A stretch of 64,000 bases of DNA from Clavibacter californiensis (GTDB lineage: Bacteria; Actinomycetota; Actinomycetes; Actinomycetales; Microbacteriaceae), in the NCBI RefSeq assembly GCF_021952865.1, contig NZ_CP040792.1:2914001-2978000 (forward strand), in the 5' to 3' direction. Below the pieces are notes generated by a model. The model saw nothing but the letters and a program-made list of their open reading frames with translations. It was not told the DNA's origin and ran no database searches. The stretch's first letter is position 1. Every line of letters begins with the position of its first letter. Of this stretch, positions 27,998-43,272 are shown piece by piece. The position numbers were made by a program, and so were the translations under genes.

Positions 27998-29702
27998 GAC
28001 AGACCTCCGTACGGACGGCGGACGCGGACGCGCGTCGACCGGACCCAGCGTACGACGGCCCGCCGACGGTCCCCGCGGCGGCCGCCCGTCCGGTCCCCTC
28101 GGCCGGTTCCACCACCGTCGCTGGGGCGACGCCTGGCTCATCGGCCTCCTCGGCTTCCTGCTCGCGCTCCCCCTCGCGGGCGCCCCGTCGGTCTGGTACG
28201 ACGAGGCCGCCACCGTGATCTCGGCCACGCGCGGCTGGGACGATCTCCTCCGCGAGCTCAGCACGGTCGACGCCGTCCACGGCCTCTACTACGCGGGCAT
28301 GAAGGTGTGGTTCGAGCTGGTCGGCTACTCCCCCACGTCGCTGCGCTTCCCGAGCGCGGTGTTCATCGGCCTGGCCGCCGCGGGCGTCGTGCTGCTCACC
28401 CGCACGATCTCCACGCGCGCGACCGGCATCGTCGCGGGGCTGGTCTTCGTCGTGATCCCCCGCTCGGCGTGGATGGGCACGGAAGGACGCTCGTTCGCGC
28501 TCGGCACCCTCATCGCGGTCGCGCTCACCGTCGCGTTCGTGCTCGCAGCCCGCCGCGCCGGAACCCGCTGGCAGGTGCAGGCCAGGTGGTGGGCGCTGTA
28601 CGGGCTGCTCGCGTGGCTCGGCGCATCCACCTTCGTGTACCTCGCGTTGCTCGTGGGTGCGCACGGGGTCGTGATCCTGTGGGCCATCGCGTCCGCGCGC
28701 GTCGGCCGCCGCAGCCGCCGGCCCATGGTCGTGTCGCTGCTCGGCTGGGCCCTCGCCTCCATCACGGCGGGGCTCCTGTCCCTGCCGCTCGTGCGCGTGG
28801 TGACGGAGCAGTCGGGCCAGGTCGGCTGGATCAAGCCCATCGGCCCGAACACGATCACGCAGGTGATCTCGACGCAGCTCTTCTACCAGAACGACGTCTT
28901 CGGCTTCCTCGCCTGGGCGCTCGCGCTCGTGGGCCTCGCGCTGCTGGTGCGCCGCGGGATCCGCCTGGTGCGCGCCCGCCGCGCGTCACGCCTCGAGCCC
29001 GAGGGCGCCCTCGCCGAGTTCGAGTCGGCGTACCTGCACGCCGGGTGGTCGCCGACGATCCTGCAGCTCGCGGTCGTGTGGTTCGCCGTGCCGACGCTGC
29101 TGCTCATCGGCGCGTCCACCCTCATGTCGCCGCTCTACTCGCCGCGCTACATGGCGTACACGGCGCCCGCGTTCGCGATGCTCATGGCGGTCGGGATCCT
29201 CGCGCTGAAGTGGAAGCCGCTCGTCGCCGCGGTGACGGCCGTGCTGGTGGCGCTGTCGCTCATGCAGCTCGTGCACGACCGCACGACCACCGTGAAGGCC
29301 GACTCCGACTGGGCCGCCATCGCGCGCATCGTCTCCGAGGAGCGCGCGCAGGAGACCCCCGGCACGAGCGAGGCCGTGATCTTCGGCCCGGTCCGGCGCC
29401 ACCCGAAGGCGACCTCGCGCATCGTCGCGTACTCGTACCCGGACGCCTTCCGCGGCATGGACGACATCCTGCTGCGCACCCCGCCGGGCGACACCGACGG
29501 CCTCTGGGAGGAGACCTACCCGCTCGCCGACCGGGTCGACGAGGTCGACGGCGCCGACGTCGTGTGGCTGGTCACGAGCGACAAGCAGGACATCCGCGAC
29601 GACGTGGCCGAGGCGCTCACCCCGCGCGGCTTCGCCAAGACCGACGACTGGCACGTGATGAACGCGAACGTCGAGCGCTACGAGCGGGTCGCGGCAGGCT
29701 GA
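27996..29702 (+). CDS. GT-C family membrane glycosyltransferase (family 39-like)
   Basis: A 568-residue polytopic protein with about eleven membrane helices and a C-terminal external domain of roughly 130 residues. The first luminal loop has the acidic pair WYDEAATVISA, characteristic of GT39/ArnT-type transferases that use polyprenyl-phosphate sugars; LYSPRYMAYTAPAFAML is the usual late-helix motif. It would transfer a sugar to a cell-wall polymer, lipid or protein on the outer face. The ATG at 27996 has only a weak ribosome site, and the first 45 residues are disordered and basic. Its start codon overlaps that of the divergent moeZ gene. Confidence 0.87.
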   Translation: MTDLRTDGGRGRASTGPSVRRPADGPRGGRPSGPLGRFHHRRWGDAWLIGLLGFLLALPLAGAPSVWYDEAATVISATRGWDDLLRELSTVDAVHGLYYAGMKVWFELVGYSPTSLRFPSAVFIGLAAAGVVLLTRTISTRATGIVAGLVFVVIPRSAWMGTEGRSFALGTLIAVALTVAFVLAARRAGTRWQVQARWWALYGLLAWLGASTFVYLALLVGAHGVVILWAIASARVGRRSRRPMVVSLLGWALASITAGLLSLPLVRVVTEQSGQVGWIKPIGPNTITQVISTQLFYQNDVFGFLAWALALVGLALLVRRGIRLVRARRASRLEPEGALAEFESAYLHAGWSPTILQLAVVWFAVPTLLLIGASTLMSPLYSPRYMAYTAPAFAMLMAVGILALKWKPLVAAVTAVLVALSLMQLVHDRTTTVKADSDWAAIARIVSEERAQETPGTSEAVIFGPVRRHPKATSRIVAYSYPDAFRGMDDILLRTPPGDTDGLWEETYPLADRVDEVDGADVVWLVTSDKQDIRDDVAEALTPRGFAKTDDWHVMNANVERYERVAAG

Positions 29703-37832: not shown

Positions 37833-38105
37833 GGTGCTCCTTCGCGTCATGCCGCACCCGCGTGGTCGGGCGGATCGGGTCGCCTCCGGGTGCGTTCGTC
37901 ACTGTATCGGGGCGCGTGGCGCGGCGGCGAGGTCCGCGGACGTCGATGCGGTGGACGCACGGCGGCGGGCTGGGGAGGAGGCCCGCGACGCCCGCACGAT
38001 GACGGGCGGCTCCGCACCCGGGCCGCCGGTGGATCCGCTCGGTAGCCTCACGAGCAGGCGCACCCGAGGCGCCGCCCGCGCAGCCGCGCCGACCCGGAGG
38101 ACGCC

Positions 38106-39569
38106 ATGCCCGAGAGCACCGACCACGCCGATCCCACCGCTGACGCCCCGAGCGACGCCGCGACCGGGCCCGAGCGCTACGACGTCGCCGTCATCGGCGC
38201 CGGACCGGCCGGCACCGCCGCAGCCCTCCGCGCCGCCGAGCTCGGCGCGTCCGTCGTCGTGCTGGAGGCCGGCCGCGTCGGCGGCACGTGCGTCAACACC
38301 GGGTGCGTGCCCACGCGCGTGCTCGCGAAGACCGCTCGGCTCGTGCGCGAGGTGCGCTCCGCGGGCGAGAACGGGATCGGCGTGGGCGAGCCCGCGCCGC
38401 ACTGGCCGTCGATCGTCGCGCGCGTGCATGCGCAGGTCGACCGGGTGCGCTCCCTCAAGGACGAGGCCGCCCGGTTCGAGGCGGCGGGCGTGACGCTGAT
38501 CCACGAGGGCCGCGCGCGGTTCGTCGACGACCGCACGCTCCAGCTCGACAGCGGCAGGCGCATCACCGCGGGCTCGATCATCGTGTGCGTCGGCGGCCAC
38601 TCGCGGCGCCTGCCCGTGCCCGGCGCAGAGCTCGCGACCGTGCCCGAGGACGTGCTCGCGCTGCCGGGGATCCCCCGCCGACTCGCCGTCATCGGGGCCG
38701 GGAACACGGGCGCGCAGCTCGTCACGGTCTTCCGCTCGTTCGGCTCCGAGGTCACGCTGCTCGACGTCGCGCCGCGCGTGCTCACGGCATCCGACGAGGC
38801 GATCTCCGAGGCCGTCGCCGACGCGTTCACCGCGCAGGGCGTGCGCGTGCGCACCGGCATCGACACCGTGACGGGCCTCACGAAGACGGGTGACGGATCC
38901 ATCACCCTGCTCTGGCGCGCGGGCGACCGCCCGCAGTCCTCCAGCTTCGACGCGGTGATCATGGCCACCGGCTGGCCCGCCGATGTCGACGACCTGGGGC
39001 TCGAGGACGCGGGCGTCGAGGTGGCGCGCTCGGCGATCCCCGTCGACCGGTACCTCCGCACGCGCGTGCCGCACATCCTCGCGGTGGGCGACGCCAACGG
39101 GAAGGACATGCTCGTGCAGGCGGCCCAGTCCGAGGGCGAGGCCGCGGCCGAGAACGCGGTGCTGGGGGTCAACCGGCGGATCCCGCTGCAGCTCCTCCCG
39201 GCCGGCGGCTTCACCGACCCCGACTACGCGGGCGTCGGCCTCACGCAGGCGGAGGCCCGCGAGCGCGACAGCGCGTGCGTGGTCGCGCGGGTCCCGTTCG
39301 CCGAGGTCGACCGCGCCGTGATCGACGACCGCGAGGCCGGCTTCCTGCTGCTCATCGCCGACCGCCGCCGCGAGCTGATCCTCGGGGCGCATGCCGTGGG
39401 CGAGAACGCGGTCGAGGTGATCCAGTCGGTCACCACCGCGATGGCCGCGGGCGTCGACGTCGCGACCCTCGCACACGTGCGATTCGCGTACCCGACGTAC
39501 AGCGCGATCATCGGGATCGCGGCGCGGCGGCTGCTGCAGGAGGACGAGCGGGCGGGCGAGCTGGACTGA
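38106..39569 (+). CDS. FAD-dependent pyridine nucleotide-disulfide oxidoreductase
   Basis: A 487-residue flavoprotein of the glutathione-reductase / mercuric-reductase class. FAD-binding YDVAVIGAGPAGTAAALRAA, redox-active disulfide GGTCVNTGCVPT, NAD(P)-binding RRLAVIGAGNTGAQL, second FAD motif ILAVGDANG, and a C-terminal dimerisation domain from about residue 360. The conserved C-terminal HP/HxxP dyad of lipoamide dehydrogenase is replaced by HVRFAYPTYS, so the electron acceptor is not lipoamide and remains unknown. ATG after GGAGGACGCC; TAGCCT at 38042-38047 may be its -10 box. The AT-rich PIN island begins right after its stop. Confidence 0.9.
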   Translation: MPESTDHADPTADAPSDAATGPERYDVAVIGAGPAGTAAALRAAELGASVVVLEAGRVGGTCVNTGCVPTRVLAKTARLVREVRSAGENGIGVGEPAPHWPSIVARVHAQVDRVRSLKDEAARFEAAGVTLIHEGRARFVDDRTLQLDSGRRITAGSIIVCVGGHSRRLPVPGAELATVPEDVLALPGIPRRLAVIGAGNTGAQLVTVFRSFGSEVTLLDVAPRVLTASDEAISEAVADAFTAQGVRVRTGIDTVTGLTKTGDGSITLLWRAGDRPQSSSFDAVIMATGWPADVDDLGLEDAGVEVARSAIPVDRYLRTRVPHILAVGDANGKDMLVQAAQSEGEAAAENAVLGVNRRIPLQLLPAGGFTDPDYAGVGLTQAEARERDSACVVARVPFAEVDRAVIDDREAGFLLLIADRRRELILGAHAVGENAVEVIQSVTTAMAAGVDVATLAHVRFAYPTYSAIIGIAARRLLQEDERAGELD

Positions 39570-40964
39570 GAGCCGGGAAAGCAACGGCAGGCATCTAAAT
39601 AAACGGCGTGAGACAAGCGAAGGAATGCGATTCATCCACTCCGAGGGCTCGATCACTTTGACCCCAATTAAAACACGTCGTCCGTAAAGCACAGCTCGCG
39701 AGAAGTGATATGGAATCATGATTATCCATTTATATCCAGATTCGAACGCGTTTTACTCCGACCGCTTTCTAAAGCGCGAATACAGCACACACTTTATCGC
39801 GTTACTGGACGCCGAAGCAATCCAAGTCACTATCTCACCGATTGTAGTTCTTGAAAGCAAAAGACATGCCCTTGAGGAAGCGCAAGAAGCTATCAGGGCT
39901 ATGAATCGCGCGATACGAACACTCGAGCATGAGACACAGATTGACGGCTCAATACTAAGGCACTCCATCGACGGCCTAGCATCGTCCATCGAGGACCACG
40001 CCGAGACGGCCCTGAACCCAGTCCTGGCCCACAACTCAACGCACGCCTTGCCCATGCCTGTTATATCAGTAGGAGATTTGGCACATAGAGAACTCGATAG
40101 GAAGCGTCCGTTTCTAGATAAGCCCGTCGGTACTATAGGGCTTCGAGACATGCTCATCTGGCAGAATCTTCTTGAGGCCGTCGATCCCGACTCCGACGAC
40201 GTCTTCCTCTTTATTACAAAAGACAAAGGATTTCTCGACGAAAGTCAGACTCGCCTCCACGACGATCTTATTGCGGACTTGGACGAAATTGGAGTCCAAT
40301 CAAATAAGGTCCGCGTGATTCCTGATATTGCACGAGCGACGGTGGAGGCGCGCCGCCTGGCGGACCTCGTGTCAGAACGAAACGCGCAACTAGAAGAGTG
40401 GATGATCTCCTATGCAGGCGAGCTGCACCAGTATCAATGGGGAACACACTTCGATGCTCAAGACGGCGGTCTAGTTGAAGGTGAAACTCAGCCCGCGACG
40501 CTTCCCCAGTACCTCGAAGATCCCCTTGTGGCGTCCGCAGAGTATCTACAGACCATTAGCATTGGAGAGGGAACGGTAGCTGAGTGCGTCGCCCTTTATG
40601 TAATCGAGTTTGATGCCCAAATGTCGACTCAAGAGTACTTTTCTGGTAGCTACCCTGACATTGAATGGTGGCACGGAGATGTAGATGATCACTATATTGG
40701 TGTCCACACCACGCGGAAGGTCCTAATTACACTACATATCGAGTACGACACAGAAGCGCAAATAGGAAGTGTTGAGGACATGCAATTTGAGTGGGCTCAA
40801 ACCGACGCCCCGGAAGGCCTGAACTAAATTGTTCATCTATCCGCAGAAATTGATTCAAGCCATCTTGCATAGTTCTCATCACTAGCCTGTCGCAGCATGA
40901 CTAATCACATAGCTACTCATCACCAAAATGAGCAGACGCACTCTGACGCTAAGGCCGGCAACGC
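39570..40964. other. Low-GC acquired segment (PIN nuclease island)
   Basis: Between the stop of the flavoprotein gene and the ATG of the NAD(P)H oxidoreductase gene the base composition drops abruptly to about 45-53% G+C in the lines counted, against about 73% around it. It holds one gene (39718-40827) with non-coding flanks of 148 and 137 bases. GGATCC, very frequent elsewhere, is absent. No transposase, integrase, tRNA or clear flanking repeat was seen. It looks like a recent single-gene acquisition into an intergenic site. Confidence 0.88.
39718..40827 (+). CDS. PIN-domain (DUF4935-like) ribonuclease-type protein
   Basis: A 369-residue protein. Residues 1-200 form a PIN nuclease fold with the acidic residues in order: Asp8 (YPDSN), Glu46 (VVLESKR), Asp144 (GLRDML) and Asp169 (FITKDKGF), so it is expected to be an active metal-dependent RNase. 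Residues 215-369 are a separate, acidic, beta-rich region of unknown type (YQWGTHFDAQ, EWWHGDVDDHYIGVH). Codon use (AGA, ATA, TTA, AAA) differs sharply from all neighbours. It has no adjacent antitoxin gene, so it may be a stand-alone defence nuclease or self-inhibiting toxin. The fold is well supported; the biological role is inference. Confidence 0.85.
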   Translation: MIIHLYPDSNAFYSDRFLKREYSTHFIALLDAEAIQVTISPIVVLESKRHALEEAQEAIRAMNRAIRTLEHETQIDGSILRHSIDGLASSIEDHAETALNPVLAHNSTHALPMPVISVGDLAHRELDRKRPFLDKPVGTIGLRDMLIWQNLLEAVDPDSDDVFLFITKDKGFLDESQTRLHDDLIADLDEIGVQSNKVRVIPDIARATVEARRLADLVSERNAQLEEWMISYAGELHQYQWGTHFDAQDGGLVEGETQPATLPQYLEDPLVASAEYLQTISIGEGTVAECVALYVIEFDAQMSTQEYFSGSYPDIEWWHGDVDDHYIGVHTTRKVLITLHIEYDTEAQIGSVEDMQFEWAQTDAPEGLN

Positions 40965-41573
40965 ATGACCGCGCTCATCGTCACGGCCCATCCCGATCCC
41001 GACTCCCTGACCCACGAGGTCGCCCGCCGGCTCGAGGCCGCGCTCGGCGCGTCCGACGGCCCCGGCGCGTCCCGTGTCACGACCGCGCACCTCGCGCAGG
41101 AGGGCTTCGACCCGGTGTTCGGCATGGCCGACCGCGGCGCGTACGCCGGCGACGCCTCCGCGCCCGCGGACGTCGTGGCCGAGCAGGCGCGCCTCGACGC
41201 CGTGGACCACGTCGTGCTCGTCTTCCCCGTGTGGTGGTGGTCGATGCCCGCGCTGCTCAAGGGCTGGATCGACCGCACCTTCATCGGCGGCTGGGCGTTC
41301 GACATCGACGATGACGGCCGCGTCCACACGCACCTGGAGCGCCTCACCGTGCACCTCCTGCCCGTGGCCGGCTTCGGTCGCGCGTCCTTCGCCCGGCACG
41401 GCTACCTCGCGTCGTTCCAGACGCAGATCGGCCACGGGATCCTGGACTACTGCGGCGCGCGCCGCGGCGTCCTGGCGTTCGTGCACGACTCCGAGTCGGG
41501 AGACCGCGACGCCGTGGGCGCCGAGGTCGAGCGGGCCGTGGCCGAGGTCGTCGCGGCGGTCGGCACCGCCTGA
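40965..41573 (+). CDS. NAD(P)H oxidoreductase of the flavodoxin fold
   Basis: A 202-residue FMN enzyme of the modulator-of-drug-activity / quinone reductase family. TALIVTAHPDPDSLTH forms the phosphate loop; VVLVFPVWWWSMPALLKGWIDR is the diagnostic motif that binds FMN and shapes the active site, followed by FIGGWAFD. It reduces quinones or related electrophiles with NAD(P)H. Its GC content is back to the genome level, so the low-GC island stops at its start codon. Convergent with the alcohol dehydrogenase gene. Confidence 0.9.
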   Translation: MTALIVTAHPDPDSLTHEVARRLEAALGASDGPGASRVTTAHLAQEGFDPVFGMADRGAYAGDASAPADVVAEQARLDAVDHVVLVFPVWWWSMPALLKGWIDRTFIGGWAFDIDDDGRVHTHLERLTVHLLPVAGFGRASFARHGYLASFQTQIGHGILDYCGARRGVLAFVHDSESGDRDAVGAEVERAVAEVVAAVGTA

Positions 41574-41593
41574 CCGGGCCCCCGCCGCGGGGA

Positions 41594-42637
41594 TCAGACG
41601 CCGTCGTCGATCCCCGTCATGTCGATCACGAAGCGGTACCGCACGTCGTTGCGGCGGAGCCGGTCGATCGCGGTCGCGACCTCGGCCGCGGGCAGCACCT
41701 CCACCTCCGCTGTGATGTCGTGCTCGCCGCAGAAGTCGAGCAGGTCCTGCGTCGCGGGTCGTCCGGCACTGCCCGAGGAGGCGAGCCGACGCCGGCCGCC
41801 GAGCAGGTCCATCGCCTGGACCCCGAGCGGGCCGAGGAAGCCGAGGACGCACAGCGTGCCGTCGAGGTCGAGCACGCGCAGGTAGGGACCGAGGTCGTGG
41901 GTGGCCGAGACGGTGTCGAGCACGAGGTCGAGGCTCGAGGCGGCGGCCGCCATCGCGGCGGGGTCGGTGGAGACGACCACGCGGCTCGCGCCGAGCCGCT
42001 CGGCGTCCGCCGCCTTGGCCGCGCTCGTGGTGAACACCGTCACCTCCGCGCCGAGGGCGCTCCCCAACCGCACCGCGAGGTGGCCGAGGCCGCCGAGGCC
42101 GACGACCCCGAGGCGCGCGCCCGGGCCGACGCCCGCGGCCCGCAGCGGCTCCCATACCGTGACGCCCGCGCACATGAGCGGGGCGACGGCGGCGGGATCC
42201 AGCGACGCCGGCCGGCGGTAGACGAAGGACTCGCGGACCACGTAGCGGCCGGACCAGCCGCCGCGGGTCGTGGATCCGTCGACGCGGTCGCGGCCGCCGT
42301 AGGTGAGCGTCGGGAACTCGACGCACATGTTCTCGTGGCCGCCGCGGCACATCGCGCAGACGCCGCACGAGTCGACGATGTTGCCGACCGCGACCGGGTC
42401 GCCGGGCGCGAAGGCCGTGACGGCGGATCCGACGGCCACCACCTCCCCGACGAACTCGTGGCCGGGGACGAGCGCGTCCTCCCGGCCGTGCTGGTCGAGC
42501 GCGTGCAGGTCGGAGAAGCAGACGCCGCAGTGGGTGACGCGGACGTCGACGTCGTCGGGACGGAGGTCGCGGCGCGCGATCTCGGTGGGGCGGAGCGGCA
42601 GGCCGGCCGCGGGAGACAGGAGGGCTGTGGTTCTCAT
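41594..42637 (-). CDS. Zinc-dependent alcohol dehydrogenase (CAD-like)
   Basis: A 347-residue medium-chain dehydrogenase. Catalytic zinc ligands in VTHCGVCFSDLHALD and VPGHEFVG, structural zinc CGVCAMCRGGHENMC, catalytic-domain Cys in APLMCAGVTVW, and Rossmann motif LGVVGLGGLGHLAV. This resembles cinnamyl-alcohol dehydrogenase-type NADP enzymes that reduce aldehydes. It is divergent from a TetR regulator with a near-perfect palindrome between them, so the pair probably forms an aldehyde or alcohol response unit. Confidence 0.92.
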   Translation of the reverse strand: MRTTALLSPAAGLPLRPTEIARRDLRPDDVDVRVTHCGVCFSDLHALDQHGREDALVPGHEFVGEVVAVGSAVTAFAPGDPVAVGNIVDSCGVCAMCRGGHENMCVEFPTLTYGGRDRVDGSTTRGGWSGRYVVRESFVYRRPASLDPAAVAPLMCAGVTVWEPLRAAGVGPGARLGVVGLGGLGHLAVRLGSALGAEVTVFTTSAAKAADAERLGASRVVVSTDPAAMAAAASSLDLVLDTVSATHDLGPYLRVLDLDGTLCVLGFLGPLGVQAMDLLGGRRRLASSGSAGRPATQDLLDFCGEHDITAEVEVLPAAEVATAIDRLRRNDVRYRFVIDMTGIDDGV

Positions 42638-42646
42638 GCCCTCACT

Positions 42647-42664
42647 CTACCTACTAGTTGGTAG
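42647..42664. promoter_or_regulatory. TetR operator candidate
   Basis: An 18-base palindrome (CTACCTACTAGTTGGTAG) with only one mismatched pair, between the ADH start (42637) and the TetR leaderless -10 box TATGCT (42670-42675). Placement lets one dimer block both promoters. Confidence 0.8.
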
Positions 42665-42681
42665 CTCCCTATGCTCGACGG

Positions 42682-43272
42682 ATGACCTCGAACGCCGACC
42701 GCACGCGCCAGCGCATCCTCGACGCCGCGACGGAGGAGTTCGCCGCCCGCGGCATCGCCGGGGCGCGCGTCGACCGGATAGCCCAGGCGTCCGGCATGAG
42801 CAAGCCGATGCTGTACTCGCACTTCGGCGGCAAGGACCGGCTGTTCGACGCGGTGTTCGCCGAGCACGTGATCGCGAACGGCGACCGCGTCCCCTTCACG
42901 GCCGACGACCTGCCCGGCTACGCGGGCCGCCTCTACGACGACTACCTCGCCGATCCCGCGCTCGCCCGCCTCGTGATGTGGAAGCGGCTCGAACGCGACG
43001 GCGCCGGGTACCTCTACCCGGGCCTCGAGGGGCACGACGCGGAGCACCGGCGCGACATCGTCGCGGCCCAGGCCTCCGGCCGGATCCGCGCGGACCTCGA
43101 TCCCGACGACGTCTGGACCCTGCTCATCGCGACGGCGGCGAGCTGGGCACAGGTCTCCATCACGACGGTCGCGACGGCGGACGACCCGGCGGCCCTCCAC
43201 GCCCGGCGTCGCGCGGCCCTCGCGGCGCACGTGCGCGACGGGCTCTGCGCGGGCGGAGCGACGACGGGCTGA
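42682..43272 (+). CDS. TetR-family transcriptional regulator
   Basis: A 196-residue regulator: N-terminal helix-turn-helix NADRTRQRILDAATEEFAARG, GVDRIAQASGMSKPMLYSHF (AGARVDRIA form) and the helix FGGKDRLFDAVF; the rest is an all-helical ligand domain (TetR_C-like). TATGCT at 42670-42675, six bases before the ATG, suggests a leaderless message and favours this start over an in-frame ATG at 42658. Likely represses itself and the divergent alcohol dehydrogenase. Confidence 0.93.
   Translation: MTSNADRTRQRILDAATEEFAARGIAGARVDRIAQASGMSKPMLYSHFGGKDRLFDAVFAEHVIANGDRVPFTADDLPGYAGRLYDDYLADPALARLVMWKRLERDGAGYLYPGLEGHDAEHRRDIVAAQASGRIRADLDPDDVWTLLIATAASWAQVSITTVATADDPAALHARRRAALAAHVRDGLCAGGATTG

What the first reader, a model, noticed from the sequence alone, without database searches (positions are those of the whole stretch)
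39570..40964. Single-gene AT-rich island carrying a PIN nuclease
In about 73% GC DNA, a segment of about 1.4 kb drops to about 45-53% G+C (two lines counted directly) and holds just one gene, a 369-residue PIN-domain protein with all four catalytic acids (Asp8, Glu46, Asp144, Asp169) plus an unknown 150-residue beta-rich C-terminal domain. It fills an intergenic space neatly and has no antitoxin, integrase or transposase. PIN-domain proteins alone can be defence nucleases; the C-terminal domain could be the sensor or self-inhibitor. This is the best candidate in the window for an undescribed system.
Basis: partly seen in the sequence, partly recalled or inferred. Interest (0 to 1): 0.82.

Follow-up and report, generated by a model that had tools for sequence, protein, structure and literature searches.

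The report
Lone PIN nuclease at defence hotspot
A single foreign-looking gene for a probable RNA-cutting enzyme has slotted between two housekeeping genes of a plant-associated bacterium, at a spot where two sister species carry other probable virus-defence genes, so it is best read as a one-gene defence against viruses that nobody has yet tested.

Summary
Window 39570-40964 is 50.7% G+C against 74.6% for other windows of that size (z -13.7) and holds one gene, 39718-40827 (+), 369 aa, with a PIN_12 domain (E 7.8e-14). Of 18 genomes of the genus (Clavibacter) only this one has it; 11 of 18 have a 34-43-bp gap there. Two sister species carry other low-GC inserts in the gap, one with a PD-T4-10_A-like gene (E 2.5e-5), one with a GajA/OLD-like ATPase, each beside a duplicated end of the upstream gene. 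The two-domain family recurs in actinobacteria, mostly as a single-gene unit. In 349 family genomes the C-terminal domain was found only with this PIN type, one remnant apart. In a model (pLDDT 82) the N-terminal part matches PIN proteins such as VapC; the C-terminal part weakly resembles NTF2/cystatin-like folds. Best reading: an antitoxin-free PIN ribonuclease against phage, gated by its C-terminal domain; defence and gating are inferred. Nearest tested kind: DS-3 (PMC13092281).

The parts
39570..40964 (.). AT-rich island filling the whole gap between two conserved genes
   Evidence: GC 0.507 vs 0.746, z -13.7; best AT-rich segment 39578-40952; gap is 34-43 bp in 11 of 18 genus genomes
39718..40827 (+). 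PIN_12 + C-terminal domain protein, 369 aa
   Evidence: ORF; PF16289 E 7.8e-14; AlphaFold2 model mean pLDDT 82.2, pTM 0.68
39739..40233 (+). PIN_12 domain, residues 8-172; acids at D8 (39739-39741), E46 (39853-39855), D144 (40147-40149), D169 (40222-40224)
40363..40797 (+). C-terminal domain, about residues 216-360: end of a long helix, then a mostly antiparallel beta part, NTF2/cystatin-like
38106..39569 (+). Flank: pyridine nucleotide-disulphide oxidoreductase (FAD gene), conserved; its 3' end is the insertion point
   Evidence: Pfam; present in 18 of 18 genus genomes
40965..41573 (+). Flank: flavodoxin-fold oxidoreductase, conserved
   Evidence: Flavodoxin_2 E 7.7e-40; strong DNA match (E <= 7.2e-180) in 16 of 18 genus genomes including this one, only short weak matches in G005 and G009

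Best explanation
A horizontally acquired, single-gene anti-phage module. The N-terminal PIN_12 domain is a metal-dependent ribonuclease; the C-terminal NTF2/cystatin-like domain holds it inactive, or oligomerises it, until an infection signal releases it; cleavage of host or phage RNA then stops phage growth (abortive infection without a separate antitoxin). The gene entered at a defence-gene hotspot at the 3' end of a conserved FAD oxidoreductase gene and is probably expressed by read-through, since it lies in the same direction as both flanking genes. Shown: foreign composition, restricted presence, a variable insertion site, a PIN fold with conserved acids, a recurring two-domain build, single-gene mobility, purifying selection among relatives. 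Inferred: RNA as substrate, phage as trigger, gating by the C-terminal domain, read-through expression.
For: Insertion: the gene is in 1 of 18 genus genomes, the FAD flank in 18 of 18, gap 34-43 bp in 11 of 18. Hotspot cargo in sister species: a PD-T4-10_A-like gene overlapping a 417-aa gene in G002 (PD-T4-10 has two overlapping ORFs, antitoxin and toxin, PMC9519451, passages), and a GajA/OLD-like ATPase in G004. Single-gene unit: 93% DNA identity over 1.9 kb between G330 and G362, 97% over 0.94 kb between G330 and G313, three different genera, with little beyond the PIN gene (about 0.46 kb after it and 0.13 kb before it for G330/G362); L083/L084 and L086/L087 align over the gene alone. Selection: dN below dS in 4 of 4 pairs and for both domains, dN/dS 0.17-0.52. 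Neighbours: Avs2 (3e-268), PDC-S46, PDC-S25, type I restriction; at E <= 1e-100 five PADLOC names among 98 neighbour proteins and none among 109 control proteins. Fold. Precedent: DS-3, a one-protein PIN defence system with no antitoxin whose catalytic mutants lose protection (PMC13092281, passages).
Against: I found no activity reported for any member. At E <= 1e-20 the neighbour excess is modest (14 PADLOC names among 98 proteins against 7 among 109 controls). P0001 itself has no convincing PADLOC, NCBIfam or PHROGs match. In the window the gene has no defence neighbour of its own in the flanking genes tested. Two of the three cross-genus copies look broken: G362 has a stop inside the frame and G313 is a remnant, so the gene is not always kept. 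Residue 169 is Asn in 4 of 13 sequences. One neighbour, a 340-aa gene facing the PIN gene, does recur in two relatives (L091, L092). No promoter-like site was found, 0 against 1.0 expected. The island's own borders show no duplicated flank, unlike the G002 and G004 inserts. Those two cargo identifications are weak (22 bits) or partial (residues 315-417 of 605, among 121 matching models). Foldseek gave no PDB match at E <= 0.001.
Confidence: 0.55

Rival explanations
1. A stand-alone PIN toxin of toxin-antitoxin type whose antitoxin was lost or is encoded elsewhere, kept as a selfish or decaying gene.
For: PIN fold close to VapC toxins; relatives on Rhodococcus plasmids between annotated recombinases and beside integrase- or transposase-like genes (judged by eye); two broken copies.
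Against: No small partner gene was seen to recur: the pairs compared share only the PIN gene (the 340-aa gene facing it in L091 and L092 is an exception); both domains are under purifying selection in 4 of 4 pairs; the VapC chains matched are about 130-145 residues, without this C-terminal domain (target lengths).
Confidence: 0.18
2. A host-RNA processing or stress-response nuclease unrelated to phage, carried by chance on mobile DNA.
For: PIN domains also act in RNA processing (SMG6, Utp24 and protein-only RNase P matches).
Against: Rare and patchy, own genome counted each time: 7 of 398 family genomes, 3 of 396 in the phylum sample, 7 of 394 by profile in the class sample; near-identical DNA in different genera; defence genes near relatives.
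Confidence: 0.15
3. A DNA nuclease against incoming plasmid or phage DNA rather than an RNase.
For: Restriction genes lie near some relatives; some PIN-like folds cut DNA (established knowledge, not tested).
Against: The PIN structures matched best include VapC and RNA-decay proteins.
Confidence: 0.1

Closest known systems
DS-3 of DefensePredictor (PMC13092281; passages seen)
   Same: One-protein PIN defence system, no antitoxin, auto-inhibition suggested by its authors
   Different: DS-3's PIN domain is split between the N and C terminus; here PIN is N-terminal, followed by a separate beta-rich domain.
PIN_12 / DUF4935 (PF16289)
   Same: Residues 8-172 match above the curated cut-off
   Different: Pfam covers only the PIN part; the C-terminal domain has no convincing Pfam match
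VapC toxins
   Different: No VapB seen, 369 aa, extra C-terminal domain, long helical stretch inside the PIN part (residues 41-104)
A0A8S5M7Q9, PIN-like protein of a siphovirus (BFVD)
   Same: Match over 406 alignment columns, E 2.6e-14, 366 aa
   Different: 15% identity; rigid superposition poor (TM 0.46, rmsd 27), so the domains may be oriented differently
Plasmid PIN_12 gene of Clavibacter michiganensis and C. capsici, next to a HIRAN or hypothetical gene
   Same: PIN_12 domain (C. capsici copy E 7.6e-16), same genus
   Different: C. capsici copy has no significant BLASTP similarity to P0001 (best E 0.57); followed by another gene

Membership tests
PIN_12 (PF16289) domain family | Match above the curated score | tested here: met
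   52.9 bits against 32; 8 of 8 other proteins scanned also pass (seven relatives or plasmid relatives and the C. capsici plasmid protein)
PIN-fold nucleases | Conserved acidic metal site | tested here: met
   D8, E46, D144 in 13 of 13 sequences; residue 169 D in 9 and N in 4 of 13
PIN-fold nucleases | Acids superpose on a PIN active site in three dimensions | not testable with these tools
VapBC toxin-antitoxin | Adjacent antitoxin gene | tested here: not met
   One gene in the island; no small partner shared by the pairs compared
Lone-PIN defence systems (DS-3 type) | One-protein PIN system without antitoxin | tested here: met
   One gene in the island; pairs share the gene alone; exception: a 340-aa gene facing it in L091 and L092
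Lone-PIN defence systems (DS-3 type) | Protection against phage lost on catalytic mutation | not testable with these tools
   Needs an experiment
Lone-PIN defence systems (DS-3 type) | Sequence homology to DS-3 | not tested
   DS-3 sequence not held
NTF2-like / cystatin-like fold (C-terminal domain) | Helix packed on a curved antiparallel sheet | tested here: inconclusive
Defence hotspot | Same site holds different probable defence cargo in relatives | tested here: met
   G000, G002, G004; the cargo calls in G002 and G004 rest on weak or partial profile matches, and G003 and G014 hold native-GC ORFs of no shown defence role

The most novel reading that the evidence does not exclude
An undescribed family of one-protein immune nucleases in actinobacteria: an N-terminal PIN_12 RNase locked by an NTF2/cystatin-like C-terminal sensor that releases it on a phage signal, spread as a bare single gene into a chromosomal defence hotspot at the 3' end of a conserved FAD oxidoreductase gene, where incoming defence cargo can arrive together with a duplicate of the gene end.
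Probability: 0.35. Interest if true: 0.68.

Novelty: new variant of a known kind. Interest (0 to 1): 0.5.

Why it matters
If right, it adds a compact family in which sensor and effector sit in one chain, so the question of how a lone PIN nuclease is kept silent without an antitoxin (raised for DS-3) could be tested on a small protein. It also points to a chromosomal defence hotspot in a genus whose defence survey (PMC11856565, passages seen) does not use the words hotspot or defense island, with an unusual mark: a variable-length duplication of the neighbouring gene's end beside the cargo.

Tried and rejected
Direct or inverted repeats at this island's own borders: longest exact match 9 nt between the two flanking 500-bp stretches, which I take as chance. 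tRNA or structured RNA at the site: one tRNA in the window, far away at 29360, no Rfam hit at gathering scores in 38000-43000. Promoters and terminators: none found, 1.0 and 1.4 expected. Drt4 similarity of P0001 (PADLOC 0.017, NCBIfam 0.081): taken as chance. Sequence search of the PDB with the whole-protein profile: none at E <= 1; with the C-terminal profile: two hits, E 1.2 and 4.2, taken as chance. Viral contigs: one PIN-part relative with profile A2, none with single proteins. Phage records: none. Genome-wide GC ranking was not possible, so GC statistics are for the window alone. A second structure job for the C-terminal domain alone was not run (the first took); so I do not claim a new fold. 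Papers: DUF4935 in 1 paper, where the passages name it in one sentence and two gene lists; PF16289 had 0 occurrences in the 12 listed of 48 papers for 'pin12 or pf16289'; 'PIN domain + single-gene + anti-phage + defense systems + catalytic' in 0 papers from 2022 on; broader PIN and defence searches listed 3 and 8 papers, of which I looked at passages of three. The PIN classification paper, doi 10.1093/nar/gkx494, is not held.

Rows dropped and control weakness: of the 14 loci, L093 (cut by the contig end) and L094 (frame in pieces) were left out of alignment A3; L095 and L096 were further left out of the C-terminal alignment A6 because I saw no clear likeness there. The gene caller was crude. 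Neighbours: 98 called proteins (180 aa or longer, with a codon-position GC filter) in 14 loci. Control: 109 of 150 called proteins, from 9 of 13 fetched loci (L104-L112; L101-L103 and L113 dropped for the residue limit), from five genomes of the family that carry the gene, two of which (G121, G185) also supplied neighbour loci; one control locus (L105) lies on the same contig as a PIN relative. Counts are of PADLOC names, not of proteins; ShosA and PsyrA are the same protein.

Full report
1. The observation. The island at 39570-40964 is real and sharp. Its G+C is 0.507; the other 1395-bp windows of the 64-kb window have mean 0.746 and sd 0.017, so z is -13.7, and the best AT-rich segment by itself comes out as 39578-40952. 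It fills exactly the gap between a pyridine nucleotide-disulphide oxidoreductase gene (38106-39569) and a flavodoxin-fold oxidoreductase gene (40965-41573). GC at third codon positions is 0.54 in the PIN gene and 0.97 in both neighbours. The one gene, 39718-40827, encodes 369 aa.

2. Where it is. The genome has a 3.17-Mb chromosome and a 78-kb second contig. A contig of a genus member (G001) is identical over the 3 kb compared, and equal in length, to a Clavibacter capsici plasmid, so the genus is Clavibacter; the species of the window was not determined.

3. An insertion. The PIN gene is in 1 of 18 genomes of the genus. The FAD gene is in 18 of 18. The right flank has a strong match in 16 of 18 including this genome. 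The gap between the two genes is 34-43 bp in 11 of 18 genomes and 432 bp or more in 5 (G000, G002, G003, G004, G014); in G005 and G009 the right gene is not there. In 15 of 15 relatives printed, the spacer carries CGTGRTCGGATG just before the right gene's ATG; here that stretch is gone and the island runs up to the start codon. I found no repeat between this island's borders beyond 9 nt.

4. A hotspot. In G002 the gap holds a low-GC insert with two genes on the other strand, 134 and 417 aa, overlapping by one base; the first matches PD-T4-10_A (E 2.5e-5, 22 bits, residues 7-113 against model positions 23-129 of 148), the second has no PADLOC match at 0.01 and only a below-cut-off Pfam one (DUF6575, E 0.0087). 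PD-T4-10 was described as two overlapping ORFs forming a toxin-antitoxin defence system (PMC9519451, passages). In G004 the gap holds a 605-aa ATPase, AAA_15 E 9.7e-18, with GajA the best of 121 matching PADLOC models, E 9.5e-20 over residues 315-417. Both inserts end, next to the right gene, in an extra copy of the 3' end of the FAD gene, of 87 bp and 206 bp; in G004 the two copies differ at 4 of 209 aligned positions. Such marks would be left by integration of DNA that brought its own copy of the gene end; whether by a recombinase or by homologous recombination is open. G003 has a 339-aa gene of native G+C in this gap and a separate low-GC insert with a 365-aa gene in the next gap upstream; G014 has a short ORF of native G+C. 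So the defence reading of the site rests on G002, G004 and the window itself.

5. The family. By single-protein search 7 of 398 genomes of the family and 3 of 396 of a phylum sample have a match, by profile 7 of 394 of a class sample, own genome included each time and some matches to the PIN part only. A profile scan of genome contigs gave 14 loci: Microbacterium, Tessaracoccus (two), Cryobacterium, Curtobacterium (two), Rathayibacter, Myceligenerans, Kocuria, Pseudonocardia and four metagenome bins, one of them labelled Deltaproteobacteria. Identity to P0001 in the 13-row alignment is 15-25%; I judged the C-terminal domain to be kept in 11 of the 13 rows. The C-terminal domain searched by itself was found in 7 of 349 family genomes; six of these also have the PIN match, and the seventh (G313) is a remnant next to ORFs that look like transposases by eye. 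PF16289 as such is in 5 of 18 genus genomes, four besides this one; three of the four lie on contigs of 65-146 kb, and the one of these compared shows no significant likeness to P0001; the fourth (G012) was not examined.

6. Mobility and selection. Three genera (G330, G362, G313) share this gene or its remnant at 93-97% DNA identity with little else around it, though the G362 copy has a stop inside the frame and the G313 copy is a remnant. L083/L084 and L086/L087 align over the gene alone. In four pairs dN is 0.14-0.38 and dS 0.69-1.22 for the whole gene; dN/dS is 0.17-0.22 for the PIN part and 0.21-0.52 for the C-terminal part, so both are constrained, the second somewhat less.

7. Company. 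Near relatives lie Avs2 and a GIY-YIG gene (L087), a PDC-S46 ATPase and a ShosA/DprA-like gene (L086), a SIR2 protein of PDC-S25 (L088), and type I restriction genes with recombinases (L070). Over the 98 neighbour proteins PADLOC gives 14 names at E <= 1e-20, five of them at E <= 1e-100; over 109 control proteins 7 names, none at 1e-100, best 5.4e-69. So the link is clear for strong hits and only modest for weaker ones. P0001's own flanking genes in the window, four tested, are metabolic or regulatory.

9. How it most likely works. A PIN ribonuclease that is safe to carry without an antitoxin must be held back by itself, by low expression or by needing a cofactor. The recurring, constrained C-terminal domain is the natural candidate for restraint or sensing. 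I infer release on infection and RNA cutting that stops phage growth. The insertion in the same direction between two housekeeping genes, with no promoter-like site, suggests read-through expression. None of this is shown by experiment.

10. Against the known. DS-3 (PMC13092281, passages) already shows that a lone PIN protein without antitoxin can defend and that its catalytic residues matter; its PIN domain is split, this one is not. So the kind is known and the variant is new as far as my searches go. A defence survey of Clavibacter (PMC11856565, passages) names Gabija, Abi, Hachiman and PD-lambda systems and has no occurrence of PIN domain, hotspot or defense island in its main text.

Noticed in passing
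L051:2195-4208 (G002; stored strand): Low-GC insert with a PD-T4-10_A-like 134-aa gene overlapping a 417-aa gene of unknown family, beside an 87-bp duplicate of the FAD gene's 3' end.
   Followed up: partly
L053:3665-5902 (G004): Low-GC insert with a GajA/OLD-like ATPase gene and a 206-bp duplicate of the FAD gene's 3' end; the copies differ at 4 of 209 aligned positions.
   Followed up: partly
L052:1149-2617 (G003): Second low-GC insert one gap upstream (citrate synthase / FAD gene) with a 365-aa protein, membrane helices at the N terminus by eye, no Pfam match above cut-off and no PADLOC match.
   Followed up: partly
L091:9102-10124 and L092:9147-10169: A 340-aa protein, in L091 with a near-cut-off DUF559 nuclease match, faces the PIN gene in both Tessaracoccus and Kocuria; the one neighbour I saw recur.
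   Followed up: partly
L087:7235-9930: Curtobacterium: the PIN gene lies between a 240-aa gene without a family and a GIY-YIG gene that overlaps its 3' end by 14 nt, all in one direction, near Avs2; may be a three-gene version.
   Followed up: partly
L099:5489-7394 and L100:6038-7943: Clavibacter plasmids carry another PIN_12 gene (331 aa) followed by a HIRAN-domain or hypothetical gene; the C. capsici copy shows no significant likeness to the window's protein.
   Followed up: partly
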